Source: Pyropia yezoensis (taxonomy: Eukaryota; Rhodophyta; Bangiophyceae; Bangiales; Bangiaceae). Taken from it: 64,000 nucleotides of DNA. Location: assembly GCA_009829735.1 (NCBI GenBank), contig CM020619.1, positions 16,683,816 through 16,747,815 of the forward strand, read 5' to 3'. A program made the position numbers and the translations under genes. Positions 1,830-64,000 of this stretch are shown here, one piece after another. How positions within the stretch are numbered: the first letter of the stretch is position 1; every line of letters begins with the position of its first letter. The notes below the pieces were generated by a model that worked only from the letters and a program-made list of their open reading frames with translations, ran no database searches and was not told where the DNA came from.

Positions 1830-2081
1830 ATGGAAGATGTTCCACCCAGGTTGAGGGTTCGAGTTGAACGCCTCTTGGACCAATTTCACAAGTTATGACA
1901 TGAGGACACTAAAAGCCTCATGTTGAGGGTGCGTTGGTTCGGCTATAAGGCCAAAGATGACACGTGGAGGATCCTTCGGCTGAGAAGGTCCGGGCGAACT
2001 GCGCCCGGAATGATATCGATCATACCTGCCCTCCCTCAACGTGAGCGAAGGCCAAGTGACAGTACCAAGAGAGTGCTTTAG
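1830..2081 (+). pseudogene. Remnant of Ty3 pol C-terminus (chromodomain) in element A
   Basis: The plus-strand frame from 1830 reads a chromodomain-like segment: VERLLDQF, then LRVRWFGY, then DDTW. This matches the order and spacing of the element C pol C-terminus (LYLRVRCFGF...DDTWEP). One in-frame TGA lies between the two halves, close to 1896, and the frame ends with TAG at 2079-2081. Chromodomains at the end of integrase define Ty3 chromoviruses and usually steer integration to marked chromatin. Here it shows that A derives from a full gypsy element by deletion of gag and most of pol. It is unlikely to be functional. Confidence 0.7.
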
Positions 2082-2155: not shown

Positions 2156-3560
2156 CTAGGCACGCATGCTAGACTCCCCAACACCACGGCCCTCGCCCTC
2201 ACGTGGAGGCGATCGGCGAGACCCACGCCGATAACGGTCTCCACTCGTTGGAGGGGGCGCCGGCTCCAAGTCGGAACCGCCGCGCCCCTCACGGTCGCGC
2301 AAGCGGCGCCGACTGTGGCTACTCTTCTGCTTGGTCTTGCGCGCAAGTTTGCGACGCAGACGCCGGACAGACTCCGTCTCCGACGGGGTAGAAGACTCCG
2401 AGACGGAATAAGACAACTCGTCTTCCGATACGGAGAAAGACCGCCGTGAGTGACGGCGACGGCGGCGAGGAGGCGAGTATGCCCGGCTTGCCCGACGCTT
2501 GCCGCGCCCAAGTGGGGCCGGCTGAGGCACAATCGACCCAATACGAGCCGACTTGGTCGTCATGAACCCCGCTACTGACTCGCAACTTGCGGTCGCCACA
2601 ACAGTACGAACGCGCTCCTCAAGTTAAGGAGTCTCGGAAACTTGAAGGGTTGCAGCCGACGCGGCCAACCAGGAAATGGTGCGCACCAACGTGGTGATCA
2701 TCATCTCAGCGGTCAAGGGCATGGCCGGTAGTACTAACTTGGGGTAGACCGTAAGCAGGGTGGCCCCCAAGTTGGGGGACACCATGGTGGACGTCTCAAC
2801 AGCAACGCTTATCGGGATGTCCCCGTGCGGCTGGAATGAAACGGGAGGAAGCGGAGGGGCTCGCCGAGTTGGCGGAGCCCGTGGGTAACTGCGACCCTTA
2901 CTCGGGGCCCCCGCAGCGAGTTGAGTCATGTACTCATCGTGAGATGGCACGGCTATAACGATAGCCTTGTCCGGGGGAGGCGCGGTGTGGCGATCCACCC
3001 CCGGGGCATACGGGTAGTCCCCGATGCCCAACCCCTCTCGAAGTACCACACGGCCGTCGTGAAGTTCACGACCGACCCAGACGAACTGGCGAAGTGTGCT
3101 ATCGTCCTTGGGCCCGCGGGATGATCGGCGCAACTTGTCCTCGATGCTCTCCCACTCGATGAGTTTATGGAGGCGCAGCATCACCTCGAGTAAAGTGAGC
3201 TGTCCCGATGAGCACCCCTCAGCAACTGGCTGAGGGGTGAGCTGTTCCAAACCTTGGATAAGCCAGGAGGATAGATGCCAGAGCACTCCCCGCCGCTGGA
3301 CACAAGACACACAGGTCGACATGACCTCGAGGAGCCACTGGGTTTCCAACATGGCAAACACCAGGTGGTCCGGGCTAGCCGTCAACATGACGGAGCCGAA
3401 GTGGTCGAGCACCCTTGGTAGTAGCTCCGGGTGACGCGGGCATACCATTCCCCGGAGCGACCGCGGGGCCCCCGCCGGATGTCCCGGCGGGCGCCACATC
3501 GCAGGATGTATCCTCCATCCGTTCATCCAGGGAGTCAGACCCCAACCCCTGAGTCACCAT
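2156..3560 (-). pseudogene. Antisense gene of element A
   Basis: This gene lies opposite to the LTR orientation, between the chromodomain remnant and the 3' LTR. The best start is the ATG at 3560-3558, matching the start in element B (A/V-T, then DERMEDTS and APAGTSGGG). The frame changes near 3430-3480, then runs through a core with DHFGSV, WLLEV and QRRGVLWHL to a TAA at 2624-2626. Beyond that TAA the same frame stays open to 2156 and encodes an Arg/Ser-rich basic tail with clusters of RRRRR and SVSEDE type. Relative to element B about 190 codons are missing in the middle. I recognise no known domain. The family recurs antisense in elements B, C, D and E. The basic RS-rich tail suggests nucleic-acid binding, which is inference. 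Confidence 0.7.
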
Positions 3561-3886: not shown

Positions 3887-3899
3887 GAGGAGAGGGGAG
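3887..3899 (+). promoter_or_regulatory. Element A polypurine tract
   Basis: An uninterrupted purine run (GAGGAGAGGGGAG) ends exactly where the 3' LTR begins, as expected for the plus-strand primer of reverse transcription. It confirms the plus orientation and therefore that the long ORFs inside are antisense. Confidence 0.8.
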
Positions 3900-4368
3900 T
3901 GTGGCAGTATTGACCCCCAGGTAGGGGGGCAACACGTGCCATACAAGGGGCGGCAGGCCACTAGCCTGACCCGTTCCTCCCCCTGCATTTGGGACCATAT
4001 TTCCTAAGTTTGGGATAGTTAGCTTAGTAGTAAATCCAACTTGGATTTTAGGGTTTTCTGCATTTATCGTCTTGAATTTTCGTGTGGCCCGGTGGGCAGG
4101 TGATGGGGTGGGAGATTCTGAGTGGCGAGATTCTGAGTGGACCCTGGGGGGATAAGGGGAGAGACAGCGGGGCTTGGCCCTGCGTCCCCGTCCCGACCAA
4201 GAAACTGTTGGACCACACACCATCTTCTTGTTTGTCAGTAGGGGGATCGCCTCACAACAGGGATAGAGTGTGTGCGACTTGGACTTCTTCCGGTTCCCCC
4301 GACACGGGAGGCAGCCCTTGTACACCGCCCCAACTTGGGCGTCGCGTGTGCGAGAGGTTTTTGCCTAA
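3900..4368 (+). repeat. Element A 3' LTR
   Basis: This copy is exactly as long as LTR1 (469 bp) and starts TGTGGCA. Its last bases are mutated to TGCCTAA instead of TGCCACA, but the TACGG duplication follows immediately, so the end is placed with confidence. Confidence 0.92.
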
Positions 4369-4373
4369 TACGG

Positions 4374-26700: not shown

Positions 26701-26740
26701 TGATGGTGTCGATGAAGGTGGACATGTCCATGGTGGCCAT
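23672..26740 (-). CDS. Ty1/copia-type Gag-protease-integrase, truncated before RT
   Basis: The start ATG at 26740 has a GCCACC context. In order: a Gag region (residues ~1-400), a CCHC zinc knuckle CYNCQGTDHFAREC (about 441), an aspartic-protease-like LDIGSPGDIVG (about 523), the integrase zinc motif H...H with CVPCQ (about 670-705) and the integrase core with MDVFQL, TDRGSESEND and GRNERHHG (about 733-825) for D, D and E. PR-IN order before RT is the hallmark of copia. The RT and RNase H that should follow are absent. The last ~20 codons are antisense to the NTPase fragment, so the true element edge lies near 23700-23735 and the terminal TAA at 23672 is fortuitous. No LTRs were recognised. 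Confidence 0.82.
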   Translation of the reverse strand: MATMDMSTFIDTITDDPPDFTTISARLAAAHRAGAQRWSDDGICSAVCIIIGDFDINTLTSTQALRISVLMNSIWAPYPVHLKRSVQGTNRNTVLKSYIDGHYLDVAALRGHNPTLHERSTPDSTAADETPAAPPPSYAVTPPPHNNIFYSLADKESVHDTYTPQASSSVRYMAQFYTAARQYGGRDDESLARARTTFFKTCDAFAVPPKLRANCVQFSVKQTEHNVPALIHDPDGFSADNIWDAIANRVTSTARDLRISKLWQIASLATEPHIAGDTEVTRFERLIGRLVTLQSQMPSRYQTAPLLTDKIMETITDQWFAATVIPDSAGDPHVLAARIKLMLTTGPPSTEPTTPSMSTTSPALTDPTPPTSTYITDHADSTEHAATDTMTVTMAADDPDEPNRVFYVLKRFRANSTTPYRTDRPTAHPHRSYRGPGPNNPCYNCQGTDHFARECPALQGSQTRAPQSVRLSDAIAPPTGDAYSSPPMIEPPPIPRQGPGLDHTSHIYYQASTWTVSEPDATTAILDIGSPGDIVGDKWLAANPQHVTTPMTPATDRWAMGRDVPETIGYISIRITTTTKAGDALSFDLPRVYVLRHDTVPLLTGLPSYERLDLVVRAKTKTCTVGDAKAPVLCTVARGHLTLLPAPKPRPPTTASSIYCTRSELSLAHRQFGHASLAALTGAFPPRTFSPSGIATLKDIAASCVPCQTHAHLPRRPKYALPPRPLAFNRVIAMDVFQLTPTAPKVLDITCTQTDYGQGRFVPGVRGEIIFSLLYLIWLAIYGCPETVMTDRGSESENDAVINALHSMAIRWRAAPTEAPWSIGRNERHHGPIRDAYLRIMAESPALAPEHALAMAYKARNDAPRAHGVSPTTLVTGQPPRLLIGDNAHDNPSIAARARAMQAARSTMERHTAADRLRGALSHPGTVVPFVEPGQEVLFHRERHGWLRGTVHLSDGKTTNVRRDGKIFSSHESRTKPFVSRPAAPHPPRPDADAPPLVPPDPPIRTHPSRRRQSHGKSDYRC

Positions 26741-41277: not shown

Positions 41278-42166
41278 ATGGCGACCCCGGGGGTGGAGAC
41301 CGACTCTCATGATGAACGTATGGAGGACACCTCCTACGGTGCAGCGCCCGCCGGGACTTCCGGCGGGGGCTCCGCGGTTGCTCCGGGGGATGGGACTCCC
41401 GCACTATCCGGCTTTGGGTTGGCGGCGGGATCTCCCCCGGAGGCCGGCCGCGTCATCCCACGTGAGGCCTTGGGGCGGTGGTTTTTTTTACCCCGCTTGG
41501 CCTCTGTATGAGGAGGGGTTGACTGTCCTTCGCTGTGGCCGACTTGGCACAGCGATGAGTCGGGTATGGGACCGCCTACGGGAGAAGTATCCCCGTAGGC
41601 TCGGATTCCCTGCCGGCTTCATGACGGACCAGTTTGCCTTCCTGGACGATGAGGAAGTCGAAGACGTACAGCGGGCCAAGGCCATGGTGGACCGCGGGGG
41701 AACTATCCCGGGTCCCGGCGACTTGCCGACCTTTACTTGGGACGCGGTGGCAACGCGCCCCCCGTACCTGCACGAGGCCGATCCGCACACTCATCACTTT
41801 GATGCGCGGATGGAGAATGACTTCCGGCGAGGTCCCAACTTGGTGACCTCGGCTCAACTTGAGTTTCCGCAGCAGTCCGCTGCCAGTAAGGAGCAGTACT
41901 ACCCGAAGAAGCCCGAGTGGTGGCCTCAAGTTGAGGTCCCCTACGGGTTCCCTGCGATGCTACCACGGTTGCTCGACCACTTCGGCTCCGTCATGTTGAC
42001 GGCTAGCCCAGATCACCTGGTGTGGGCCATGTTGGCTACCCAGTGGCTCCTCGAGGTCATGTCGACCTGGGTGTCTTGTGTTCAGCGACGGGGGATTACC
42101 CCACCGGCAAGTACTCCTTGTCCGGCTGCTGCTGAAGCAGCACACAACCAAGTTGGTCGTCGCTAG
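41278..42166 (+). pseudogene. Antisense gene of element B
   Basis: The start is the ATG at 41278 (GCCATGG context), giving MATPGVETDSHDERMEDTS. A T-run near 41480 shifts the frame; the continuing frame shows YYPKKPEWWPQVEVPYGF, then DHFGSVMLTASPDHL and TQWLLEVMS, ending VQRRG before the similarity to element A is lost. The terminal TAG at 42164 is in rearranged sequence. Orientation is opposite to the LTR, as in A. The YYPK...P.GF block is shared with the antisense gene of element C (AYYPKVIPQQQEIKIPVGF), which links the two LTR families. Function unknown. Confidence 0.72.
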
Positions 42167-42335
42167 CGTCCACATCCAGGATGTAGTGGCCTGGGAATAG
42201 CCAAGATGGGGGGCTTCAGCAGAAGGTCCCGAAGAGTCTCAAAGGATTCCTTCTTCACCCGACTTGGGGGAGGCAGGTGCTTCGGAAGCGTTGAGCTAAT
42301 TAGCTCATTCAGCGGCTTCGCCACCTTGGCGAAGC

Positions 42336-42490
42336 TGTGGTATAAAACTCGATCCTATCAGACACGTGTCAATATCCCTTGGGGAAAAGGGACAGGTAAC
42401 ACAGAAAAGGGAACTACGAGAGTGGTATGCCTGATGCCTCACGCGCCTGCTCGCAAAGCAAACAGATACACACGGTGGAGCACTCGTCCG
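42336..42490 (-). repeat. Fragment of an element C-type LTR
   Basis: The reverse complement matches the last ~130 bp of the element C 5' LTR (AGGGATATTGACACGTGTCT, then TTTTATACCACA), and similarity stops exactly after CCACA, which supports that as the LTR end. On the other side it fades into the first unit of the 334-bp array. No primer-binding site follows, so it is a solo or broken LTR. Confidence 0.8.
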
Positions 42491-45400: not shown

Positions 45401-47896
45401 GCGCATGGCTGGGACACGCCACTTCCGCAGGGACAGTTGTGAATAATTGTTATTATTTCATCCCGCTCGCGTTGTCAGCTGGAGCACTCGTCCGTTCCCC
45501 ACACCGGCCGGGGCGTCTATGCGCCCCCGGGGGCGTCATGGCGCCCCCGGCCGTCCAGGGCGCCATTCGTGCGGCTGCAGGACGCCAGTGTGGCGCGTAA
45601 ACTTGGACATAAGTACAAACATTCAAACCGCCAAGCCGCGGTCACCCACTGCCGCCCTCCGGGTCGTCCAGGTCGCGCAACTAAAAAGCACCTCCAGAGG
45701 TCAAATTGGGCCACCACCCGCATGGGGGACGTTGCGCATGGCTGGGACGCGCCCCTTCCGCACCAAAAATTGGGAACAAATGTACGCATTCCATCCCGCT
45801 CGCGTTTGTCAGCTGGAGCACTCGTCCGTTCCCCACACCGGCCGGGGCGTCTATGCGCCCCCGGGGGCGTCATGGCGCCCCCGGCCGTCCAGGGCGCCAT
45901 TCGTGCGGCTGCAGGACGCCAGTGTGGCGCGTAAACTTGGACATAAGTACAAACATTCAGACCGCCAAGCCGCGGTCACCCACTGCCGCCCTCCGGGTCG
46001 TCCAGGTCGCGCAACTAAAAAGCACCTCCAGAGGTCAAATTGGGCCACCACCCGCATGGGGGACGTTGCGCATGGCTGGGACGCGCCCCTTCCGCACCAA
46101 AAATTGGGAACAAATGTACGCATTCCATCCCGCGCGCGTTTGTCAGCTGCAGCACTCGTCCGTTTCCCACACCGGCCGGGGCGTCTATGCACCCCCGGGG
46201 GCGTCATGGCGCCCCCGGCCGTCCAGGGCGCCATTCGTGCGGCTGCAGGACGCCAGTGTGGCGCGTAAACTTGGACATAAGTACAAACATTCAAACCGCC
46301 AAGCCGCGGTCACCCACTGCCGCCCTCCGGGTCGTCCAGGTCGCGCAACCAAAAAGCACCTCCAGGGGTCAAATTGGGCCACCACCCGCATGGGGGACGT
46401 TGCGCATGGCTGGGACGCGCCCCTTCCGCACCAAAAGTTGAGAACGCATGTACGCATTTCATGCCGCGCGCGTGCGTCAGCTGGAGCACTCGTCCGTTTC
46501 CCACACCGGCCGGGGCGTCTATGCGCCCCCGGGGGCGTCATGGCGCCCCCGGCCGTCCATGGCGCCATTCGTGCGGCTGCAGGACGCCAGTATGGCGCGT
46601 AAACTTGGACATAAATACAAACATTCAAACCGCCAAGCCGCGGTCACCCACTGCCGCCCTCCGGGTCGTCCAGGTCGCGCAACCAAAAAGCACCTCCAGG
46701 GGTCAAATTCGGCCACCACCCGCATGGGGGACGTTGCGCGTTGCTGGGACGCGCCCCTTCCGCACCAAAAATTGGGAACAAATGTACGCATTCCATCCCG
46801 CTCGCGTTTGTCAGCTGCAGCACTCGTCCGTTTCCCACACCGGCCGGGGCGTCTATGCACCCCCGGGAGCGTCATGGCGCCCCCGGCCGTGTAGGGCGCC
46901 ATTCGTGCGGCTGCAGGACGCCAGTGTGGCGCGTAAACTTGGACATAAATACAAACATTCAAACCGCCAAGCCGCGGTCACCCACTGCCGCCCTCCGGGT
47001 CGTCCAGGTCGCGCAACCAAAAAGCACCTCCAGGGGTCAAATTGGGCCACCACCCGCATGGGGGACGTTGCGCATGGCTGGGACACGCCACTTCCGCAGG
47101 GACAGTTGTGAATAATTGTTATTATTTCATCCCGCTCGCGTTGTCAGCTGGAGCACTCGTCCGTTCCCCACACCGGCCGGGGCGTCTATGCGCCCCCGGG
47201 GGCGTCATGGCGCCCCCGGCCGTCCAGGGCGCCATTCGTGCGGCTGCAGGACGCCAGTGTGGCGCGTAAACTTGGACATAAATACAAACATTCAAACCGC
47301 CAAGCCGCGGTCACCCACTCCCGCCCTCCGGGTCGTCCAGGTCGCGCAACCAAAAAGCACCTCCAGGGGTCAAATTGGGCCACCACCCGCATGGGGGACG
47401 TTGCGCATGGCTGGGACGCGCCCCTTCCGCACCAAAAATTGGGAACAAATGTACGCATTCCATCCCGCGCGCGTTTGTCAGCTGCAGCACTCGTCCGTTT
47501 CCCACACCGGCCGGGGCGTCTATGCACCCCCGGGGGCGTCATGGCGCCCCCGGCCGTGCAGGGCGCCATTCGTGCGGCTGCAGGACGCCAGTGTGGCGCG
47601 TAAACTTGGACATAAATACAAACATTCAAACCGCCAAGCCGCGGTCACCCACTGCCGCCCTCCGGGTCGTCCAGGTCGCGCAACCAAAAAGCACCTCCAG
47701 GGGTCAAATTGGGCCACCACCCGCATGGGGGACGTTGCGCATGGCTGGGACGCGCCACTTGCGCACGGACAGTTGTGAACAAATGTACGCATTCCATCCC
47801 GCGCGCGTGCGTCAGGTGGAGCACTCGTCCATTTCCCACACCGGCCGGGGCGTCTATGCGCACCCGGGGGCGTCATGGCGCCCCTGGCCGTGTAGA
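42476..47896. repeat. Tandem array of a 334-bp unit, about 16 copies
   Basis: The marker GCATGGGGGACGTTGCGC (with variants) recurs every 333-334 bp, for example near 43385, 44053, 44720, 45053, 46388 and 47390. Copies are highly similar but carry shared variants: TTGTGAATAATTGTTATT near 44770, 45437 and 47105, and AAAAGTTGAGAACGCATG near 43428 and 46432. Each unit holds a GC-rich foldback (CCGGGGGCG facing CGCCCCCGG). Because 334 is not a multiple of three, every frame shifts from unit to unit; the many 147- to 298-codon open frames are by-products, not genes. The array sits between a broken LTR and a truncated pol. Confidence 0.93.
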
Positions 47897-47898
47897 CG

Positions 47899-49331
47899 AT
47901 GACTGCTCACGCCATCGAGAAAAGCTCCTGGCCTGCGCGACTGTTATCTTTTTCCGAGACTGATGACGGAGTCATATACCGGCGGGCACTCGCCGATGGA
48001 AGACATAAAGTCCTGATTTACGTGGCCTTACGACAAGCCGTCATGGAACGAGAACACGAGAACCCTAGAGCCGGACACCCGGTGGGTCTTTGTATGTTTG
48101 CAGCAATGCAAAGGTTCTTCTGCTGGCCAGAAATGGCAATCGACGTAGTCGACTACGTGCGGGGATGTCAGCCGTGTGCACGGAATCGTATGGGTCTTCA
48201 TGAGCGGGCATCCGTTATAAAACTATCCTACTCGATGGGCCCAACGAGCACGTCGCTATCGACATACTCGGGCCGCTTCCGGTAACGAAATAAGGGAAGA
48301 GGTACATCCCGGTCATGTCGGACCGCTTCACCAAGCTGTCACGAGCGGCAGCTATTCCGGATGATACAGCATACACGATCATGAACGCAGTGGTTGACCA
48401 CTGGATCAGTCCATACGGAGTGATGAAGCAACTCCTCTCCGACAACGGAGCAAACCTGACTTCAGCTTTCTGCACTAAGGTCGTGGGCATGTTCGGTATC
48501 GAACCCCGTCGGGCATCCGACTACCACCCGCAAACCAACGGGCAGGTGGAGCGGTTCAACCGCACCATCGTCAAGATGCTCCAATGCTACGTGGTGGAAC
48601 ACAAGAACACGTGGGACAGGCTCCTGTCCGTATTGACCTTGGCATACAATGCCAGGCCCCACCGGAGCACGAACATTGCACCACTGGAGTGGGTCATGCC
48701 GATGGGCGTCGGTAACCTGACGCTGCCACCGGGCAGATGCACTCTGTATGACATACCGAAGGGCCTACCGGCCGAACGAATCCACTTCGCATGGTTGGCC
48801 TAGCTATCGTGGATGATACCTAAGCTCAAGAGTGCCGTTGACCGAACACATCTTCGATACAAGAAGAACTTCGACGCCCGACTACGGGTACGCAATGCGA
48901 CCCTGGTGACAGGTCACTGGGTCAATATCAGACACCAGAAGTTCCGAGGGAACAAGCTTATGCAACCGGTCAAGGGACCGTACTAGATACTACACAGAGA
49001 TGCTCACTCTGTCATCCTCCACTCCGATACGGAGATACAATGCATCAAACTCAATGATGTGACACCTGCTCCGAAGCCGGAACAGCCTCAGCCGGTACCG
49101 GCTGGGTTGCTACATGAAGCTCTTACAACCCACCGGTCAGATGACCCGGTGGGGCCGGATGGGATTCCATACCAAGTAGAGAGCATTGTCGGACACACCG
49201 ATTCGGACCTATCAGGACCCTGGTACATCAATGTAAAGTGGGTCGGATACGACTCACCGACCTGGGAACAGGCGGCAAATATATCCCGCCAGCTCCTCAT
49301 GCCTTACATGTGGCGACGCCGCCTACTGTAA
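47899..49331 (+). pseudogene. Element E: 3' end of a Ty3/gypsy pol (integrase, chromodomain)
   Basis: The frame from 47899 carries the integrase zinc-binding block (GHPVGLCMF...CQPCARN). After a frameshift near 48240 the core continues with AIDILGPLP, a TAA (48291), LLSDNGANLTSAF and YHPQTNGQVERFNRT, the D, D and E regions. The same frame crosses TAGs at 48801 and 48984 and ends with a chromodomain (YQVESIVGH...WYINVKWVGYDSPTWEQA, 49170-49290) before the TAA at 49329. Protease, RT and RNase H are cut away at the array junction (about 47897). The sequence is clearly distinct from element C pol, so E is another chromovirus family. Not functional. Confidence 0.88.
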
Positions 49332-51850: not shown

Positions 51851-52421
51851 TGTAGCATCCCTGGCCCCGACTTGGCCCCGACTTGGGACTACAACCAGAG
51901 GGCACCTGGTGCCAGAACACGCCCGCCGTGTGGTGATGATTGGCGGCCGTGGCCCGTGCCCGGCACTGGGATGCGGTGGACTACGCTATCCACACGTGAG
52001 AGAGGGATTTCTGATGGGTTTTTGCATACTTGTGAGGGACTTGATTTGAGAGAATTTGAGCGTGAGATTAGTGAGTGGGAATAGAATTAGTAGTGATAGT
52101 GGCCCCAGACCTGACGAGGTTAGACTCGGGTCGGGGCCACTCGGGGGTATGGGGGGGCTACCTGGCCAACGTGCCGAGGCTCTCCCAGATGCACGTCAAG
52201 AGGGACAGCGAGGCGCCCTTGGCCCGCGCCCTCAGGAAAAAGACAACTGCGCGTTTGCTTTCCTCTTATCCGTGTGCACTACCGTGGGTATCTGTTTGCT
52301 CTGCGAGCAGGCACGTGAGGCAACAGGCATACCACTCTCGTAGTTCCTCTTTCTGTGTTGCCTGTCCCTTTTCCCCAAGGGATATTGACACGTGTCTGAG
52401 AGGATCGAGTTTTATACCACA
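51851..52421 (+). repeat. Element C 5' LTR
   Basis: Begins TGTAGCATCC and ends TTTTATACCACA. The end is supported by the fragment at 42336, whose similarity stops at the same base, and by the primer-binding site four bases later. Confidence 0.88.
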
Positions 52422-52630: not shown

Positions 52631-54502
52631 ATGGCTACCCTCCCTGGCACGATGGTGCCCGAAGGGGTAGACCCCGCGTCCCTTGACGCATGCCTGGTCA
52701 CCGTGGGGGACGGTGCCCAACCCGGCGTTCTCCCTACGGGTGAAGCAGACCTGGGTGTGACATCCGGTAGTAGACTGGAGTCTACAGGCGGCCAAGCACA
52801 TCCTGCTCCCGTTCCTCCGGCTGTTCCTCCTGTGGGAGCCACCCCGGCGTCAACGGCGTGTGAGTCCGCTCGCAGCAGACGTCTCCCTCCTGTCGGTTCT
52901 ACTCCTCAACCTCCAGGGATAGCCCCTGTTGTGTTTACTCCTGGACCCACACATGGCCGCTGGGTGTATACACCTCTTCCTGTGGGCACTAGCAGTGGCA
53001 GGGGCACCGCTGTGACTGGTTCTACGGGTCTCTTCGAGACCTCAACTCCTGGGACCGGCCAAGCTTTTCCTCCCCTTGCATCCTATGGGGCGGGGAGCCC
53101 CAAGACCAGTAACCGGAGCAGCCGGAGGCGTCGGCGTCGTCGCCGTCGCTCTAGCACAAGCGAGACCAGCTCCTCCAGCTCTGAGGAGTGATATGACTGG
53201 GACGCATCTCCTGGTCCCACCCGGCGCAGGTTAGTCGAGTTTGACTTCCCTGCCCACCAAGTTGGAGATGCCACCCTGAACAAGGTCACGTACTGGGGTA
53301 ACTACCGGCTGGAGCACCAAGACCAAGGTTACACCCGGAAGATGGCCAAGAAGATGGCATCCCTGGACCGGCGAATGCAGCCGAGCCTCGGGGGACATCC
53401 TAAGTTCTCCGAGAAGAGACCGGCGTTTATTTTTGCCTTCCTGCGCCGGTTTGTCAAGGCATGCAACGACAACGTTGTGTCCGAGGGCAAGGCTCTCTAC
53501 CTCCTGGTTCACTTCATGACCGGAGAAGCGGAACAGCGGTTTGCACAGGTTCTACCAGACTCTGCCGGACACATTGTCGGGCGTACCGTTGGGAGCTATC
53601 CGGAGGCGGTCTACTGGCTCCTGTCTAACATCGCTGACGCGGACCCCCTGCGTAAGGCAGCCGGCAGGCTGAGCCGGGCAACCATGGAGAGACAAGAGAC
53701 TCCAGAGGCCTTCGCCGGTCGTGTCCGGGAGATGAGCGAGGCTTGTGGCAACGTTTACGCTGAGAACAGGCTCAAGATGATCTTCTGGGAAGGGCTTCCT
53801 GAATATCTTCAAGTGGATGCGGAGAACTACAACCAGGAACATCAAGAACATACCTTCCAGCAGTTGATGGCCTGCACCCAGGGCAAGTACCGGCAAGCCA
53901 AGGCCCTCCAAGCTCCCATGGTATCAACTCCCAAGCCGTTGTCGTGAGTTCGTCCCGGACCCGACAAGTATAAGATAGGTGATAGCCCTGTACCGGTACT
54001 CGCAGTTGGCGAGGCCTCACCCGTGGGGTCAGGGGACAAGTGGGGCGGCTTCGTTTCTAAGGAGCAACCTTTTCTGGTCGCCCCCAAGCAGGTCAAGAAC
54101 CAGCGGTTCCGGTCTTGCTGGCTGTGCCAGAAGGAGGACCACATGTCCTACCAGTGCCCGACCATTCCCAAGGATCTCCAGGAGAAACTCAAGCGTCAAG
54201 GACTGGTGTTTGCAAAGGCGGTCAACTGGGCTGACCAGCGAGCACCCTCCAAGATGGACAAGGCACAGGTACACGCAATCCGAGTGGCAACCATACAGAG
54301 CATCACGGAGGCTCTGGCAAGGGAAGCTCCTACGGACTTTGACCTGGGGACCGAAACCTCTAAGGACCCCTCGGACCCGGGAAACGAGAAGGCCAGGCGC
54401 TCTCCCCAAGTGTCTTCCCGAACCTCCAACGGCAGGGTACTTCTACCCGTTCTCCCCTTGCGTGCCGGGAGAAAGGACGGCAGTTACCTGCTCAACTGGT
54501 AG
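52631..54502 (+). pseudogene. gag: Element C Gag, one frame with two in-frame TGAs
   Basis: The ATG at 52631 (CAACATGG context) opens a Pro-rich N-terminus that ends in an Arg9 run and a Ser-rich acidic patch (SSTSETSSSSSEE). A TGA (53189-53191) follows, and the same frame continues with the Gag core (VEFDFPA..., LVHFMTGEAEQRF, YWLLSNI, FWEGLPEYLQ) to a second TGA (53945-53947). The frame then goes on to a zinc knuckle CWLCQKEDHMSYQC near 54116 and ends with TAG at 54500. Gag packages the RNA into virus-like particles. Both TGAs lie in frame with no indel, and pol downstream is intact, so they may be point mutations or recoded stops. Pol is in the -1 frame relative to gag. Confidence 0.8.
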
Positions 54503-54519: not shown

Positions 54520-57500
54520 TTGTTCAAGGGGACCTTGCTTGTCCTGCGTAAGGAAAACCTCAAGATTAATGCTCGTATGCGTGTGGGGGATAGCCTCCCC
54601 CAAGCTGTTACGCCGGTGGTTGACACGGGGGCCGGACCAAGCGTCATCACTGAGAACCTGTTACCTCCGGGCTGGCGTCGACATGCCTGGAGAGCGCCTA
54701 CCAGAACCCACATTGTCGACGCATCAGGTCAAACCCTACGACCGCTCGGCCGCCTTTCCGTCGCCATCTATGTCAACAATGAACCAATGCTTTTTCCATT
54801 TCTAGTAGTCAAGACCCTATCAGTCCCCCTTATCCTAGGCTCGGACTTCCAGAAGCAGCATGTCAAGAGCATCCTACCCGGAGAAGGAAAGGTGCAGTTC
54901 AACCATGGGTTTGTGTCACCGGTGTTGGAGCATCTGGACGCCAAGGTTCGTGTAGTCAAGAACAAGAAGGAACGCATCCCACCCTCTACCTTGACTCTCT
55001 TCAAACCGGTGCTCCTACCTCCTCGCTCGGAGACCAAGGTTCAAGTAACGACCCGGACTGCAGGTCAATGCCTAATCTACGGACGTAAGGAGTTTCTGGC
55101 GAAACACCGGTTATACTTGGCCCACGGACATCACAAGAAGGTAGAAAGGCACACTCCGTTCTCGGTGCTGATCGTCAACGTGAGCCGGATGCCAATAACC
55201 CTCGCCAAGGGCACCCGAGGTGGTACAGCAGAGCCTTACGGGGGGTCCGCTCGTGCTATGAGAAAGGAATACCTCTTGAACCTGCAACAAGAGCTGGCAT
55301 CCAACTTGACGGCCTTAGACGTACCTCCGAAACAAGAGCAGGCTGGCAGCGCCACTCCAAAGCCCGAACAAGCACCACCCGGGATGCCGAAGGTCAAACA
55401 AGAAAATGTTCTTCCCGACTTGAAGGAGGCACTGGAGAAGCTTCTCCAGGAATATCGGCACCTGTGGTCTGGAGAGCTGGGCAAGATGGACGCCACTCTG
55501 CACCGGACTCAACTCAAGCCAGATGCCAAGCCAGTACACCTGCAACCGTACCGGGCTGGACCTCATCGCCGGGATGAGATTGAGAAGCAGGTTAACAAGA
55601 TGCTCAAGATAGATGTCATCGAGCCGTCTGATGGCGAGTGGGCCTTCCCGCTGGTAGTCGTCCCAAAACCTGGCGGTCACTTCCGTTTCTGCGTTGACTA
55701 CAGGCGCCTGAACGAGATGACAGTCAAGGATGTATACCCGATACCCCGGATGGATGATTGCATCGATTTTCTCGGTGATGCCACCCTCTTCTCAACGCTG
55801 GATTGTAATGCCGGTTACCGGCAGATCCCTCTGGCTGACGAGGACAAGGACAAGACCACCTTCACGTGCCACTTGGGACTATTCCAGTGCAAGCGTCTTC
55901 CTTTTGGTCTCACCAATGCTCCGGCGACCTTCCAGAGAGCCATTGACATCATCCTGTCGGGGCTAAGGTGGAGAACATGTTTGGTCTACCTGGACGATAT
56001 TATCGTTTTCTCCAAGACCCCGGCGGAACTCCTGGAGCACCTTCGAGAGGTCCTGGCTCTCCTGTCCAAGGCTGGAGTTACCCTGAAGGCCGAGAGGTGC
56101 CACCTGTTTGAGACTGAGGTGGAGTACCTGGGGCACGTGCTGAGTCCGGGGGAGCTCCGAGTCAATGAGAAGAACATCAAGGCCCTCCGGCATGCACGGC
56201 AACCAAAAACCCAGACGGAACTCAAGAGCTTCCCGGGTATGTGCAACGTCTACCGCCGGTTCGTACGGGACTATGCTCTGATTGCCCGGCCATTGACCAA
56301 GCTCACCAGCGAGAAGCTCCCCGCACAACTCCCGGTGTTCGACGAGAAGCAGACCGCGGCCTTCGAAGAGCTCAAGAAGCGCCTGACCACCACTCCAGTA
56401 CTGGCGTTACCCAAGCAGGAGTGCCAGTTTGTCCTGGAGACTGATGCCTGTGGCTTCCAGGTGGGGTGCTCACTACTCCAGCAGCAACCTGATGGGCACT
56501 TCCTCCCGATAGGCTACTACAGTCGCGTCTTGACTCCAGCCGAGAAGAACTATTCCACGACGGAGCGCGAGTGCTTGGCGGTCGTGTGGGCTTCCTTCCT
56601 GTTACGCCCATACCTTGAAGGACAAGAGTTCCTCATCCGGATGGACCACGCCAGCCTAAGGTGGCTGCTATGCATGGACTGCAGCCAAGGAAGGGTCGCC
56701 CGGTGGCGTCTACGCCTCTCGGAATTCAAGTACAAGGTGTGCACCAGAGCAGGGAGGGAGCACCACTGCGCCGACACCATGTCCCCGCTGGAGACTCCTG
56801 CAGCCGACACCGGTCCTATCCCGGAGGATATACCTTGTTTCATCCTCCCGAATGTCGGACGTGGCTGGCATGCTCCCCTGTATGAGATACCTGAAGTTCA
56901 TCAACCGGTAACCATTCACCGGATGCTGGAGGCACAATTAACGGATCCTCAATGCTTGGAGCTTCGCCACCAAATGGACATGGACCGGAACAGTCGTTTC
57001 TCCGAGTCTACAGATGGACTCCTGGTACAAGTGTCACCCTTCGATGGGGCAACTCAAGTCTACGTACCCCGAAGTCTACGAACTGACATCCTACGACTGG
57101 AGCACTTGTCTCCCCAGGCCGGACATCCTGGTATCAATCGGATGTATGCCTCAATGCGACGACATTACTACTGGGAAACCATGGCCAGCGACGTCCATAA
57201 GCACCTGGAGGCTTGTGTTTCTTGCGCAAGGAACCGGTTGTCCCAGAGGAAGAAGACTTCCATGCTACGCCTAGTCCCTGCGGCGAAGCCCTTTGCAAGC
57301 TTAAGCATGGACATCCTGGGGCCCCTACCTGAAACATCCAGCGGCAACATATACCTGCTCATCATTTGTGACTGGCTCTCCAAGTTCACTCGAGCGATCC
57401 CGCTGAGGACCATCACGGCTCTGGATGTCACGTCAACCTTCTGCGAGTACTGGATAGCTGCCTACGGCCCTCCAGACTCCGTCTTAACAGACAATGGCCC

Positions 57501-58479
57501 CCAGTTTGCATCCCTGTTTCTCCAAGGAGTCTGTGACCTGATGGGCATCAAGAACTTGTTCACCACGACGTACCACCCGCAAACGAACGGCCAGGTGGAA
57601 CGATTCAACCGGACCCTAGTGGACATGCTACGGCACTACGTGGAGGAGCACCAGGAAGACTGGGACGAGCTCCTGGCTGTCCTCACTCTTGCCTACAACT
57701 CCCGAGTTCACCGGACAACGGGGGTCGCTCCACTCGACTTTGTCACCCCAAGGCGGCTGACCAATTTCTCCCTGGAAAGAATACCAGACGGTCTCCAACC
57801 TGCTTTGAAGTCAGGTCCCAAGGCCAAGGATGAGTTCCTGGAACAACTGAAGCTCCTGCTCCCCAGAGTCAAGGAGTCATTCTCAAAGACCCAGGAGCGA
57901 TACAAGCGGGACTATGACAAGGGAGTCCGGGAAAAGAACAAGGAACTGAGTGGTGGCGACTGGGTTTTTGTGGACAACCATAGCATGACCCGGGGGAAGC
58001 TGGACTCTAAGACGGATGGACCTTATGAGATCCTGAATACGGATGGCTGGACCTTCCTTCTAGACGTGGATGGCTCCCCGTACCGAGTGAGCAGCGACCA
58101 TGTCACCCGATCTCCACAGCCAAGCAAACGGGACTTGATCCGGCGCAAGCGGGCCGCAGTACCCTGGCTCTCCCAAGAAGAAGGCCGGGAATATGTCTAC
58201 GTCAAGTTTGTCGACCATGCCTGGAGGGACGGGCGCTTGTACCTGCGAGTACGCTGTTTCGGTTTTAACCCGGCAGATGACACTTGGGAGCCCTCAAACC
58301 GGTTACCCATCGCGGACGTCTGCGCCTACACGCGACGGAACGGGATTGAGGGCACTCCAGTTGCCAGAGCCGGCAAGATCCTGGAATCGAGCTCGGAAGA
58401 GGGCCAGGAGAACGGGGCTGATCAAGACCCTCAGGACAAGCCGAGCTCACCCGCAACGGACGTGGAACAAGAGTATTGA
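54520..58479 (+). CDS. pol: Element C Pol polyprotein: protease, RT, RNase H, integrase, chromodomain
   Basis: An uninterrupted 1319-codon frame, probably entered from gag by a -1 frameshift rather than from its own start (the first codon taken, TTG at 54520, is arbitrary). In order: protease VDTGAGPSVI (residue ~34); RT with FSTLDCNAGYRQ, LPFGLTNAPATFQ and YLDDI (catalytic DD about 492); RNase H with VLETDACG and TERECLAVVWA; integrase HHCC (GHPGIN...CVSCARN, about 865-905), core MDILGPLP, TDNGPQFAS and NGQVERFNRT (D ~931, D ~990, E ~1027); and a C-terminal chromodomain ending LYLRVRCFGFNPADDTWEP. All catalytic motifs are intact. RT-before-integrase order and the chromodomain place it in Ty3 chromoviruses. 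Confidence 0.97.
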   Translation: MFKGTLLVLRKENLKINARMRVGDSLPQAVTPVVDTGAGPSVITENLLPPGWRRHAWRAPTRTHIVDASGQTLRPLGRLSVAIYVNNEPMLFPFLVVKTLSVPLILGSDFQKQHVKSILPGEGKVQFNHGFVSPVLEHLDAKVRVVKNKKERIPPSTLTLFKPVLLPPRSETKVQVTTRTAGQCLIYGRKEFLAKHRLYLAHGHHKKVERHTPFSVLIVNVSRMPITLAKGTRGGTAEPYGGSARAMRKEYLLNLQQELASNLTALDVPPKQEQAGSATPKPEQAPPGMPKVKQENVLPDLKEALEKLLQEYRHLWSGELGKMDATLHRTQLKPDAKPVHLQPYRAGPHRRDEIEKQVNKMLKIDVIEPSDGEWAFPLVVVPKPGGHFRFCVDYRRLNEMTVKDVYPIPRMDDCIDFLGDATLFSTLDCNAGYRQIPLADEDKDKTTFTCHLGLFQCKRLPFGLTNAPATFQRAIDIILSGLRWRTCLVYLDDIIVFSKTPAELLEHLREVLALLSKAGVTLKAERCHLFETEVEYLGHVLSPGELRVNEKNIKALRHARQPKTQTELKSFPGMCNVYRRFVRDYALIARPLTKLTSEKLPAQLPVFDEKQTAAFEELKKRLTTTPVLALPKQECQFVLETDACGFQVGCSLLQQQPDGHFLPIGYYSRVLTPAEKNYSTTERECLAVVWASFLLRPYLEGQEFLIRMDHASLRWLLCMDCSQGRVARWRLRLSEFKYKVCTRAGREHHCADTMSPLETPAADTGPIPEDIPCFILPNVGRGWHAPLYEIPEVHQPVTIHRMLEAQLTDPQCLELRHQMDMDRNSRFSESTDGLLVQVSPFDGATQVYVPRSLRTDILRLEHLSPQAGHPGINRMYASMRRHYYWETMASDVHKHLEACVSCARNRLSQRKKTSMLRLVPAAKPFASLSMDILGPLPETSSGNIYLLIICDWLSKFTRAIPLRTITALDVTSTFCEYWIAAYGPPDSVLTDNGPQFASLFLQGVCDLMGIKNLFTTTYHPQTNGQVERFNRTLVDMLRHYVEEHQEDWDELLAVLTLAYNSRVHRTTGVAPLDFVTPRRLTNFSLERIPDGLQPALKSGPKAKDEFLEQLKLLLPRVKESFSKTQERYKRDYDKGVREKNKELSGGDWVFVDNHSMTRGKLDSKTDGPYEILNTDGWTFLLDVDGSPYRVSSDHVTRSPQPSKRDLIRRKRAAVPWLSQEEGREYVYVKFVDHAWRDGRLYLRVRCFGFNPADDTWEPSNRLPIADVCAYTRRNGIEGTPVARAGKILESSSEEGQENGADQDPQDKPSSPATDVEQEY

Positions 58480-58624: not shown

Positions 58625-60741
58625 CTACTCCCGGCGCGGACGCTGCGCCGCGGGAGCGTCCTCCAGCGCTGCCTCCGCGGCACGACGGGAACCGGAGGAA
58701 GGCGGGATGACGTAGTGCGGTGGGCGCGGCGCATCCAGGTATGACGCCATCGGAGTAGTACCGGTAGTTGCCGGGCGCTCCCGCTCATCCAGATATGCCT
58801 GTCGGCGCCCCTGGAAGTCAGTGAAGGTCTCTGACCACTGCTGGGCCAAGCCATGCCGCGTCAAATTCGCCAGAAGTTCGCCAACCACCGGGCTGTCCGA
58901 CATCTGGCCGCTGTCTGCGCAAGCAAACACCCGGTCAACCACGTTGTTCAAGACGCTAGCGTAGGTGCCCCGCACCAGAGAAGTCCCGACGCCTTCGACT
59001 TGCACAGGAAGACGACCCAGCTGGTCTTCAATCATGCCGACGTCATACTGGTCGCACGTCGCGCCACCTTGGTGCAGGTACCAGTCAGGCACCCGGAAGC
59101 GGGTAAGGCGAAGAGTCGGCGCCGGGATCTCGAACCGCCCCGAGGATGCCACTACCGGACGGTCCACGACAGCCCCGGAGACCGGAGTCCCCAACTCAAG
59201 AGGAGGCACAGGGCCGCCGACGTTTGAAGAAGGCGCCCGAGACGGAACGGCCGGAGTAGTCGGCGACCGCACGGCCACGCCCAGACTCGCTGCAGACAAG
59301 CGCGGTGCCGGAGGAGCTTGAAGCACCGGCACAGATGGAGCAGAACGAAAACGCGCCGGCTACGGTCCAGGCGAAGCCACCGGGACGACAGGTGCAACAG
59401 GAGCAAGCGGAACCGCCGCAGACGCCCGACCGACCGCCGCGGCCCATCCCGACTCTTGCACCGGCGGCCCAGTTGGCAAAGGATCGAGGGCGACCGGAGC
59501 AGGAAAGCTGCCTAGCTGAGGCCACGCCGGAAGCGGTGTCGCCAGCTGCACCTTGGCCGTAGAAGACTGGTAGACCACCTGCACTCAACCGGAGCCATCC
59601 CGACGCGGGCTGTTCTGGTCGGCGATCGCGTTCAAGAAGCTCCGGTCCTGCACCGGCAGCCGACGCCGGAAGTCGATCATCGCCTGGAAGAGCTCCTTGT
59701 ACTCCTCGTCCTGGCTGCACAGGAAGTCGACGGTCAACTTGTCAACGATCCGGACCATCAGGAGGTCGGGGAGGAACCAAAGCCGGTTGGACACTAAGAC
59801 CTCGTGGAGCCAGTGGCTGGCCGCCAAGACCGTCAGCTCAGAGGTGTACATCATGTACGGGATCGAGTGGAAGAAGCTCTTGATCGACGCCTGGGTTAAG
59901 GCGTCCAAGAAGTACCAGTTGAAGGGGATGCTGGATGGAGCAAACCCGACTGGGATCTTGATTTCCTGCTGCTGCGGGATGACCTTGGGGTAGTACGCCG
60001 CCCGGTTGGCCTTGTCCAGCTTCCAGAACTCCTGATGGTTGCAGCTCACGATGAAGTCACGCTGGCTGCCGCGCCGCTCGCCCTGCTCCCGTGCCGGCGA
60101 CAACTTCGAATACTTCCGGGTCAGGAAGGGCGGCTCCAGAGCGACCATGCTCGGACGGGGATCGCAGTTCAGGCCCCCCGACCCCTTGAGCGCCTCGTTC
60201 CAGACCTTGAGCGCCCGGTGGACGTACCCTTCCTCCTCTGGCCACCGGAGAACGGACGCAGACAGGCGACGCTCGGTCAAGGGTAGATCCAGCACCAGCG
60301 CGAAGGGGAGATCCTCCAGGCGAGCAACTCAAGAGGAACCCGAGAAGCTCTGGGAGCGGTCTTGTGCCAGGCGCATCTGGTCCGGCGTATGAAGGCGAGT
60401 CTTGTCCATCTCGGTCAAGACCCCGCGCTGGAGTTCCTTGCGCCAGATGTCCAAGCAATCCTGTTGGCACTGGGCCGCGCTGGCGTTGCCGACCACCGTG
60501 GAGTAGCGCCGGCCCGCCAGAGGATCCTGCCCAAGAAGCATCTCCGGGAGACCCACTGGGGGGGTCTCGACCGGGTGCAACGCAGAAGCCGGGGAACCCG
60601 ATCCGTCCCCGCCGTGGCGACCGGCGCCGGCACCGACACTCGAGGATCCGGAGGCAGGAGAGGGGCGCGACTACCCGAGTTCTCTTCCGCAACACTCGCC
60701 GCCGGAACCACTGGCCCAGCCTGGATCTCGGAACTGGACAT
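58625..60741 (-). pseudogene. Antisense gene of element C
   Basis: It lies between pol and the 3' LTR on the opposite strand. The likely start is the ATG at 60741 (MSSSEIQAGPVV). One frameshift near 60590 is followed by a single frame of ~650 codons to 58625, broken only by TGA at 60329, TGA at 59585 and TAG at 59360. The core has AYYPKVIPQQQEIKIPVGF, SFFHSIPYMMYTSELT, ASHWLHEVLVSNRLWFLPD and a charged DEEYKELFQAMIDFRRRLP. These align with YYPK...VPYGF, the FGSV region and TQWLLEV in element B. The C-terminal part is Pro/Ala-rich, then FRVPDWYLHQGGATCDQYD. No known domain, signal peptide or membrane span, so it is not an obvious envelope. Similar protein in five elements implies selection. 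Confidence 0.75.
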
Positions 60742-60926: not shown

Positions 60927-61388
60927 TGTAGCATCCCTGGCCCCGACTTGGCCCCGACCCGGGAGTACAACAAGAGGGCACCAGGTGCCAGAACACGCCC
61001 GCCGTGTGGTGATGATTGGCGGCCGTGGCCCGTGCCCGGCACTGGGATGCGGTGGACTACGCTATCCACACGTGAGAGAGGGATTTCTGATGGGTTTTTG
61101 CATACTTGTGAGGGACTTGATTTGAGAGAAATTGAGTGTGAGATTAGTGAGTGGGAATAGAATTAGTAGTGATAATGGCCCCCGACCTGACGAGGTTAGA
61201 CTCGGGTCGGGGCCACTCGGGGGTATGGGGGTGCTACCTGGCCAACGTGCCGAGGCTCTCCCAGATGCACGTTAAAAGGGACAGCGAGGCGCCCTTGGCC
61301 CGCACCCTCAGGAAAAAGACAACTGCGCGTTTGCTTTCCTCTTCCCCGTGTGCACTACCGTGGGTATCTGTTTGGTCTGCGAGCAGGC
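60927..61388 (+). repeat. Element C 3' LTR, truncated
   Basis: Matches the first 462 bp of the 5' LTR at about 96% by eye, then stops at GAGCAGGC, where the LTR of element D begins. The last ~109 bp, including the TATA-like TTTTATA, are missing. Confidence 0.9.
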
Positions 61389-61752
61389 TATAGCACAATA
61401 GGGTATCCGTTTTACGTCCACTCTCAGGGAGCACTCACCACGGGGGATCGACACCAACGTCACCGGGAGGCCAAGGTTGCTGTCCTTCGAGCGCAAGCCA
61501 CGGGACCAAGATGGGAGCCCAAATAGGAGGGGTTCGTTGTTCTACCTTGGCCGGCGGTGGATTCGCCGCCGGCCCCCTCGTTATAAACCCTCGGAGACAC
61601 TACTAACTGCCCTCCACCCCAAGATGCAAGTCCCGCTGGTCATACGTAACTTATCGATACCGTGACCAGTACGGACTCCCAAATTGAAAGTTAAGTGATA
61701 GATGTAGCCCCCCTAATATTAGGGTCACAATACGAACAACCATATTGCTACA
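61389..61752 (-). repeat. Element D 3' LTR (proposed)
   Basis: On the minus strand it begins TGTAGCA and ends TGCTATA, a 7-bp inverted repeat with one mismatch. It contains a TATA-like TTTATAA (61581-61587 on the minus strand). There is no second copy in the window, so the call rests on its ends, the adjacent purine tract and the junction with element C. Confidence 0.6.
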
Positions 61753-61764
61753 TATCCCCCCCTT
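61753..61764 (-). promoter_or_regulatory. Element D polypurine tract
   Basis: On the minus strand TAAGGGGGGATA runs into the TGTAGCA start of the proposed 3' LTR. Confidence 0.55.
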
Positions 61765-62316: not shown

Positions 62317-64000
62317 ATGTCGGACCCCCAGGTACCCGGGGGCGAGGACGACCTCCTGCTTGAGGAGGAGGAAGGGGTGATGGTGGACGACGTTCCCGTC
62401 TCTGCCACCGCTGCCGAGTGCTTCTTGACGAGCTCGTCCGAAGACGAGGGCGACCGGGTAACCGTCCGCGTGGCCCCGGAAGGTGCGCCGGGCGGTTTGT
62501 CGTCAGTGTGCAGCGGCACGACGGCTCCGTCGGGTGGCGGGCAACCGCGTGTGGCAGCTGCCTCTACCCCTACTCCTCCGGCGGCCCGGATGGCTCCTGT
62601 CGCCGGTGCCGGCGCGGCTCTACCTCAAGACGGCGTCGCCGGCGTGTCGGATGGTCGTGGCGGCACCCCGGCCGGGACGGCGGGTCAAGACGGCGCGGGT
62701 GCCCGCCCGGCTGGTGTATCCGCGGCGGAGGGTAACGGGTCTACCCCTGCTGCCCCCGTGGTGCCCACGTCGGGCCCGGGTGGCGGCGATGCTCTGCCCG
62801 CGGTGCCGCGGACGCTTGGTGGTCAAGAAGTGTCTACCCCGATGGCAGTGGACTCCGGGAGCTAATCCGGGCGGGCGCGCGCCCTTCTTCTTCCTCCTCG
62901 GCCCTGTGCACCTCCGGCACCGGCCCATCTGCCGGTGGGGCATCCCCCGGCGCCCCCTATTCTTCCTGGTCCTGCCCGGGTTGCCCCTTTGGGTGGCGGT
63001 GTCGCCTTGGCGGCGGGTCCACCCGCTATGTCGATGTCCGACTTGGTGGCTCGGGTCCGAGGCCTGACGGTGCAGGAGTCGATGGAGTCCGTTGGGCGGA
63101 TGCGGGTGGACTTCCACCAGCCGCGTCTTCCTGGAGAGACCTTTCGGCGCGTCAAGGTGGACCCGAGTTGGGAGCGGGGGTTGGTGCGGCTGGTCAACCA
63201 GCCGAACGCGGTCCGGGTGGAACATCAGTGGATCCTGAGCCAGCCGGACGACCGGCATGCGCAGCTCTGGCGCACCCGGATGGGGCGGGGTGAGGTGTAC
63301 CTCGACTCCGCCTTCGGGATATGCGACTTGATTGCCCGCGCGTTGCCGCGGGAGGTTGACTACCCGGCTAGTGCTCGGGGGGTTGCGGCGGCGGCGGAGC
63401 CGGTAGCGTTTGGGGAGACAGTGGGTGATACCGGCCGGTATCCCGGCTTTAAGTACTTCCCGGGGGTATCCCCGTATCTGACGTTGACGGCTCCCTACCC
63501 GCCTATGGCGGGGTTGAAGTCGGCGTCCAGCTGGCGGCGCAACCATGGTGTCATGGCGGATGCGTTCCGCACCGATATAACATGTGCGTTGCAGACCGGC
63601 AACGGTCGTGCGTCGGTATACACTCCCGTGCGCCCACCTCTGTGGCAGGAGGGGTGGGAACCCGCCCCTGCTTTCCGGTTTGACACCGGCTCCTGCCTCC
63701 GGTACTTCGGGAGTGTGTTGGCCTGCCGGCCGGTCCACCCGTTGCAGGGTACCTTCACCCTTGAGGTTACCCTCGGGCAGACTTCCTCCTTCTTGCTGTC
63801 CGTCCGCCGGCAGGGGCGCCTGTTTCATCTTCCGACGGGTGTCCGTCGGCACATCGCGCAGTTGGGCGTGGACATGATAGCCGCCAAGACCGGGTTGGCC
63901 CGGGAGTTCGAGGCCCTGCTGGCTGTTCACGATGCCGTGAGCTGGGCTGGGGTGTTGGCTTTTCCCCCGTACCGGGATCCGCAGGCTGGGGCTTCCCCCT
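62317..64000 (+). pseudogene. Antisense gene of element D, open to the window edge
   Basis: The ATG at 62317 (TTCACCATGT) starts an acidic N-terminus (DDLLLEEEEG, SSSEDEGD) and a Pro/Ala/Gly-rich stretch. A TAA at 62863-62865 replaces the TAC (Tyr) present in element E. The same frame continues to the last base with DLVARVRGLTVQESMES, QPNAVRVEHQWILSQPDDRH, RYPGFKYFPGVSPYL, LRYFGSVLACRPVHPLQG and VRRQGRLFHLPTGVRR. Over ~500 codons it is colinear with the E copy at high identity. The downstream ATG at 63028 could start a shorter protein. Function unknown; same family as the antisense genes of A, B and C through FGSV and RR.G.L[FW]HL. Confidence 0.75.

What the first reader, a model, noticed from the sequence alone, without database searches (positions are those of the whole stretch)
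58625..60741. A conserved antisense gene at the 3' end of five LTR elements
Seen: elements A (2156-3560), B (41278-42166), C (58625-60741), D (62317-64000) and E (49762-51850) each carry a long frame on the strand opposite to the LTR/pol orientation, between the end of pol and the 3' LTR. Shared blocks link them: YYPK...P.GF (B, C), FGSV (A, B, D, E; FHSI in C), WL.EV (A, B, C) and RR.G.L[FW]HL (A, D, E). The LTRs and pols are of at least two or three distinct families, so the antisense protein outlasted pol divergence. In A it persists although gag and most of pol are gone. Established: antisense extra ORFs are known in some plant Ty3 elements (Grande-type). I do not recognise this protein family. 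Inference: it may regulate sense RNA, bind nucleic acid or assist particle formation.
Basis: partly seen in the sequence, partly recalled or inferred. Interest (0 to 1): 0.88.

Follow-up and report, generated by a model that had tools for sequence, protein, structure and literature searches.

The report
Antisense gene of red-algal retrotransposons
Several families of jumping genetic elements in what is probably a nori seaweed genome carry, written backwards behind their enzyme gene, the same unknown protein gene that evolution has kept working; backward genes of this sort are known from flowering plants, but this protein is of a kind not recognised before.

Summary
Window copies A, B, C and E are broken or cut; D leaves the window. 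Unbroken copies (many frames of 724-847 codons) are common in the same 107.5-Mb genome, probably a Bangiales red alga. The antisense frame is under purifying selection (dN/dS 0.42, 0.27, 0.30 in three families). Four other frames give 1.07-1.78; the phase-mirrored fifth gives 0.35-0.54 but is rich in stops. The three families' proteins are homologous: profile E 1.4e-5, 5.2e-5 and 0.005, with 0 of 60 shuffles per pair reaching the real score. A 46%-identical protein is annotated in Pyropia vietnamensis. No Pfam, PHROGs or PDB relative was found; PF04195, the plant Retand antisense domain, does not match. The arrangement is that of plant 'aORF-3R' genes (Grande, RIRE2, Retand) with a new protein family in another host phylum. 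Most likely it is an element-encoded accessory regulator transcribed from in or near the 3' LTR; transcription, localisation and function are untested.

The parts
58628..60741 (-). element C: antisense gene, broken copy in two frames (residues 1-50 and 51-705 of the L043 protein)
   Evidence: tblastn 89-94%; dN/dS 0.24 against L043
51851..52312 (+). element C: 5' LTR
   Evidence: 96.5% to 60927-61388
60927..61388 (+). element C: 3' LTR, preceded by a purine tract
53342..53947 (+). element C: gag-like frame (reading by eye; no Pfam match)
   Evidence: 0 families
54520..58479 (+). element C: pol (protease, RT, RNase H, integrase; weak chromodomain-like end)
2159..3560 (-). element A: antisense gene remnant in two frames, residues 46-223 missing
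   Evidence: dN/dS 0.20 against L044
663..1129 (+). element A: 5' LTR
   Evidence: 97.0% to 3899-4365
3899..4365 (+). element A: 3' LTR, preceded by a purine tract
1902..2041 (+). element A: remnant of the end of pol
41278..42097 (+). element B: antisense gene remnant, residues 1-272 in two frames
   Evidence: dN/dS 0.16 against L044
40476..40961 (-). element B: 3' LTR (same family as A), purine tract beside it
42099..42351 (-). element B: pol fragment next to the cut antisense gene
62317..64000 (+). element D: antisense gene from its ATG, continues beyond the window
   Evidence: 91% to L033 over residues 1-561
61391..61754 (-). element D: 3' LTR (element's sense strand is minus)
   Evidence: 95.9% to L053 495-858; pol on minus in L042
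49810..51861 (-). element E: antisense gene, residues 97-780 of the D-type protein
   Evidence: dN/dS 0.40 against D
47895..49328 (+). element E: 3' part of pol, in more than one frame
   Evidence: D-type pol residues 872-1349

Best explanation
It is a real protein-coding accessory gene of a group of Ty3/Gypsy LTR retrotransposons in a Bangiales red alga. SHOWN: the gene lies antisense and tail to tail with pol (111-451 bp between the stop codons in three genomic copies). Its proposed ATG faces the 3' LTR at 0.18-0.56 kb. It occurs in three element families with different LTRs and pols only 39-46% identical, is under purifying selection, and its proteins share a core of roughly 170-180 residues. 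INFERRED: the three families inherited it from one ancestral element. INFERRED: it is transcribed from an antisense promoter in or just inside the 3' LTR, in the manner of maize Grande gene23 and HTLV-1 HBZ. INFERRED: the protein (acidic or Ala/Pro-rich N-terminal part, conserved core, basic tail in the B and C types) acts in the nucleus on the element's own expression or integration. The antisense mRNA, complementary to the 3' part of the genomic RNA, could add control at the RNA level.
For: dN/dS 0.42/0.27/0.30 in this frame, with four other frames at 1.07-1.78 and the fifth rich in stops; window pairs 0.40, 0.20, 0.16, 0.24. Frame length beyond 200 of 200 shuffles per family. Cross-family profile matches with 0 of 60 shuffles each reaching the real score; BLASTP of C and B cores E 1e-8. 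Constraint lowest in the shared core in D and C. 46% and 41% identical proteins in Pyropia vietnamensis. The pol end/antisense-gene end junction is complete in 40 of 40 scored C copies and 40 of 40 scored B copies (the best-scoring of 559 and 1390 candidates). Frames and distances.
Against: No transcript or protein evidence. The D-C profile link alone is weak (probability 7). dN/dS of the gene (0.41) is clearly higher than that of pol (0.17) in the same D-type loci. In B one block outside the core is more constrained (0.16) than the core block (0.20). 3 of 11 D-type loci examined lack more than 1 kb of pol beside the gene. No domain or fold points to any function; the nuclear role is by analogy only.
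Confidence: 0.6

Rival explanations
1. The antisense RNA, not the protein, is what matters: an antisense promoter at the 3' LTR makes RNA complementary to the 3' part of the genomic RNA, which tunes it through dsRNA or siRNA, and the open frame is a passenger.
For: Tail-to-tail layout means any antisense mRNA overlaps the genomic RNA. PMC7264820 (parts 1-2 of 3 read) discusses this possibility for plant elements.
Against: Codon-level constraint in exactly this frame, strongest in the core shared across families. It may still act in addition.
Confidence: 0.12
2. An env-like, structural or movement protein that happens to be encoded antisense, helping particles or transfer between cells, with no regulatory role.
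For: Position between pol and 3' LTR is where env-like genes sit (PMC7264820, parts 1-2 read); no test here excludes a structural role.
Against: Opposite orientation to env-like genes; no Pfam domain of such proteins; basic, Arg/Ser-rich tail in the B type seen in the alignment. Membrane-spanning segments were not predicted with a dedicated tool.
Confidence: 0.13
3. A captured host gene or a remnant of another mobile element that was picked up once and is now merely carried along.
For: Its base composition differs from pol (GC2 0.52-0.59 against 0.42-0.45) and no origin is known.
Against: Same place and orientation in three families with long-diverged pols, and continuing purifying selection. 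The capture itself may be true as an origin; carriage without function is not supported.
Confidence: 0.08
4. A by-product of base composition or of a sense-strand gene; no gene at all.
For: Long sense-strand frames of 299-683 codons occur opposite the gene in single copies (L032, L033, L036-L038).
Against: Frame length beyond 200 of 200 shuffles in each family. Sense-strand frames have dN/dS above 1, or below 1 with 15-39 stops per 1000 codons; one search agrees.
Confidence: 0.02

Closest known systems
Antisense additional ORFs (aORF-3R) of plant Ty3/Gypsy elements: maize Grande gene23, rice RIRE2, Silene Retand ORF4 (PMC7264820, parts 1-2 of 3 read; PMC11963269, passages)
   Same: Protein gene antisense between pol and 3' LTR, kept in most copies of a family, with conservation at protein level
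   Different: No PF04195 (TRP28) match. Host is a red alga, not a flowering plant. Retand is a non-chromovirus lineage by PMC11963269, while these pols end in weak chromodomain-like stretches. Transcription and nuclear location, known for Grande, are untested here
HTLV-1 HBZ and other retroviral antisense genes (PMC11963269 passages; PMC7264820 parts 1-2)
   Same: Antisense gene at the 3' end of a provirus whose start faces the 3' LTR
   Different: No bZIP or other Pfam domain found; promoter not tested; no sequence relation shown
Boty of Botrytis cinerea (antisense ORF, as described in PMC7264820)
   Same: Antisense ORF between pol and 3' LTR outside plants
   Different: Fungal host; its protein was not available here for comparison
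Hypothetical proteins MMPV_009242 and MMPV_008948 of Pyropia vietnamensis
   Same: Clear homologues of the D/E antisense protein (46% over 79% and 41% over 69% of the query)
   Different: Annotated as ordinary genes; their genomic context could not be seen

Membership tests
[quoted passage not shown]
aORF-3R class (antisense ORF between pol and 3' LTR) | present in most copies of a family, not a one-off capture | tested here: met
   junction complete in 40 of 40 scored C and 40 of 40 scored B copies, the best-scoring of longer lists; pol beside the gene in 8 of 11 D-type loci examined
aORF-3R class (antisense ORF between pol and 3' LTR) | conserved as a coding sequence | tested here: met
aORF-3R class (antisense ORF between pol and 3' LTR) | antisense transcription | not testable with these tools
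   no RNA data held
Retand antisense protein (TRP28, PF04195) | match to PF04195 | tested here: not met
   0 matches at E<=10 in the whole genome; not among hmmscan matches of 9 + 13 alignment members. A resemblance in residue spacing that I recall comes from no call
Chromovirus (pol) | chromodomain at the C-terminus of integrase | tested here: inconclusive
   PF00385 E 0.00045 (B), 0.022 (D), 0.077 (C), all under the curated cut-off
env-like additional ORF | same orientation as gag-pol | tested here: not met
HBZ-like retroviral antisense gene | antisense promoter in the 3' LTR | not testable with these tools
   only the facing arrangement is seen
HBZ-like retroviral antisense gene | bZIP domain | tested here: not met
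   no bZIP family among Pfam matches

The most novel reading that the evidence does not exclude
The red-algal antisense protein and the antisense proteins of flowering-plant Retand/Grande elements descend from one ancient antisense accessory gene, so that a 3'-LTR antisense regulator is an old shared part of the Ty3/Gypsy life cycle in algae and plants. The only hints are the identical arrangement and a spacing of core residues that I recall as resembling TRP28; the HMM test for TRP28 was negative. If the origins are separate, this is an independent arrival at the same arrangement, which would itself point to a general need for it.
Probability: 0.1. Interest if true: 0.85.

Novelty: new variant of a known kind. 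Interest (0 to 1): 0.58.

Why it matters
Antisense genes behind pol are established in flowering-plant elements, but their function is unknown. Here is a case in a distant host phylum with a different protein family, many copies (at least 80 with a near-identical junction) and a compact constrained core. That gives a comparative handle on what such genes do, with a clear test by stranded RNA-seq and protein localisation. It also shows that 'hypothetical proteins' in red-algal gene lists may be element genes; MMPV_009242 may be one, though its context was not seen.

Full report
SETTING. The window lies in a 107.5-Mb genome of 11 contigs, at C2:16683816-16747815. The nearest named proteins are from Pyropia vietnamensis (Bangiales). 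The size fits what I recall for Neopyropia yezoensis; the species is an inference.

OBSERVATION. With three unbroken genomic copies as queries (L033 for the D type, L043 for C, L044 for B), tblastn finds the antisense protein at A 2159-3560, B 41278-42097, C 58628-60741, D 62317-63999 and E 49810-51861. LTR pairs: A 663-1129/3899-4365 (97.0%), C 51851-52312/60927-61388 (96.5%), D 61391-61754 with L053 495-858 (95.9%). A and B share one LTR family (95.6%); C and D have others. A purine tract directly before the 3' LTR fixes the sense strand in A, B and C and the D type, and pol does so for E and D (L042). The protein frame is on the other strand each time. The window copies are mostly damaged. 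A lies in two frames, lacks residues 46-223 and keeps a pol remnant at 1902-2041, as an internal deletion would. B lies in two frames and is cut at residue 272 beside a pol fragment. C lies in two frames. E lacks residues 1-96 and its 3' LTR where C begins. D starts at its ATG and leaves the window.

INTACT COPIES AND ANATOMY. Genome searches list 80 scored D/E-type hits (of 1493 first-look candidates), 150 C-type (of 1800) and 110 B-type (of 4695); the lists are cut, so these are lower bounds. Many rows show stop-free frames, for example 825 codons (D/E), 761-847 (C) and 724-742 (B). In L043, L033 and L044 the stop codons of pol and of the antisense gene face each other at 145, 451 and 111 bp. 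The proposed ATG lies 184, 563 and 341 bp from the 3' LTR (ATG, LTR edges). A 631-bp probe across the C junction matches 40 of 40 scored copies over its full length at 99-100%, and a 571-bp B probe 40 of 40 at 100%. These are the best-scoring of 559 and 1390 candidates, so complete copies are favoured. Of 11 D-type 10-kb loci (10 chosen from the best hits, plus the window flank L042), 8 have more than 1 kb of pol beside the gene; L031, L037 and L040 do not. The near-identity of the B and C junctions implies recent spread of copies that carry the gene.

IS IT CODING? Longest stop-to-stop frames of 825/845/724 codons compare with maxima of 507/550/402 in 200 dinucleotide shuffles per family. Nei-Gojobori dN/dS over representatives less than 95.5% alike (D 26 of 31 sequences, C 4 of 5, B 5 of 7; copies identical to the reference were left out before) is 0.42, 0.27 and 0.30 in the antisense frame. 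Frames -0, +1, +2 and -2 give 1.07-1.78. Frame -1, whose third positions coincide, gives 0.54/0.35/0.41 but holds 23/15/39 stops per 1000 codons, against 2.2/1.3/1.8 in the antisense frame. The pairs share branches and some copies are dead, so the values are descriptive and without error bars. Window pairs: D-E 0.40, A against L044 0.20, B against L044 0.16, C against L043 0.24. A and B overlap too little to be compared with each other. D-type pol gives 0.17 (8 of 11 loci usable) and the antisense gene 0.41 (11 of 11): constrained, but evolving faster than pol.

ONE FAMILY OR THREE? Profile comparisons align the same region in the same order: D-B E 1.4e-5 (probability 80), C-B 5.2e-5 (67), D-C 0.0048 (7) (E-values for single comparisons). 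Of 60 profiles per pair shuffled within 40-column blocks, none reaches the real score (best 25.6/24.9/27.0 against 50.1/45.6/32.2); reversed profiles score 21.4/16.6/23.0. BLASTP of the C and B cores gives E 1e-8, 23% over 166 columns. The D-C link is weak alone and rests on B. Along the gene, dN/dS is lowest inside this stretch in C (0.08-0.09) and D (0.22-0.24). In B the core block is 0.20, but a block outside it is lower (0.16). Pols are 41% (C-D), 46% (C-B) and 39% (D-B) identical. Descent of gene and pol together is the simplest reading; trees were not built. A homologue 46% identical over 79% of the query (661 aa) is annotated in Pyropia vietnamensis, a second 41% over 69%. The C- and B-type searches returned one near-identical protein each.

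WHAT DOES THE PROTEIN LOOK LIKE? Read by eye from the alignments: an N-terminal part rich in Ala/Pro/Gly with acidic stretches, a conserved core, and a variable tail that is rich in Arg and Ser in the B type and ends in RPRRE in the C type. No informative Pfam, PHROGs or PDB sequence match. AlphaFold is not informative: in the D core model only residues 212-284 and 294-329 reach pLDDT 50 or more, mostly helices, with no structural neighbour.

MECHANISM. I commit to an element-encoded accessory regulator made from an antisense transcript that starts at or near the 3' LTR. Position, orientation and protein-level constraint are shown. Promoter, nuclear action and regulation are inferred from maize Grande, whose antisense protein is nuclear and transcribed from its own upstream promoter (PMC7264820, parts 1-2 of 3 read), and from HTLV-1 HBZ (PMC11963269, passages). 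RNA-level effects may act in addition.

COMPARISON AND NOVELTY. The arrangement is that of plant aORF-3R genes. The Retand domain PF04195 is absent by HMM. Pol ends resemble chromodomains only weakly, and the 2012 survey saw none in this group of algae (PMC3350952, passages). Seven literature searches in an open-licence library listed no earlier report for red algae; this does not exclude one in subscription journals or repeat databases. I file it as a new variant of a known kind: known arrangement, new protein family, new host phylum.

Noticed in passing
window 42468-47774: 16 head-to-tail copies of a 334-bp unit, 94-100% alike, directly beside element B.
   Followed up: no
window 52309-52419; 42335-42448; L053 858-968: A segment of about 111 bp just inside the 5' LTR of C recurs (91-94%) at the edge of the 334-bp array and next to the outer LTR of D, which suggests a history of recombination.
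   Followed up: partly
L043 about 4192-5818: The C-type LTR is present twice (4192-4655 and 5357-5818) with a masked stretch between them.
   Followed up: no
window 51851 and 61388-61391: Element C abuts E on one side and the outer LTR end of D on the other, without matching flanking bases, so it does not look like a simple insertion.
   Followed up: partly
window 9521-11929 (+) and 14906-17635 (+): ORFs of 802 and 909 aa that by eye resemble a KDZ-type transposase and a PIF1/Helitron-type helicase; names are recalled, no search was made.
   Followed up: no
window 23672-26740 (-): A 1022-aa ORF that by eye looks like a copia-type gag-protease-integrase frame; an integrase stretch matches B-type pol weakly (E 1.8e-6).
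   Followed up: no
window 32989-35157 (+): A 722-aa ORF with a possible P-loop motif (by eye), family unknown.
   Followed up: no
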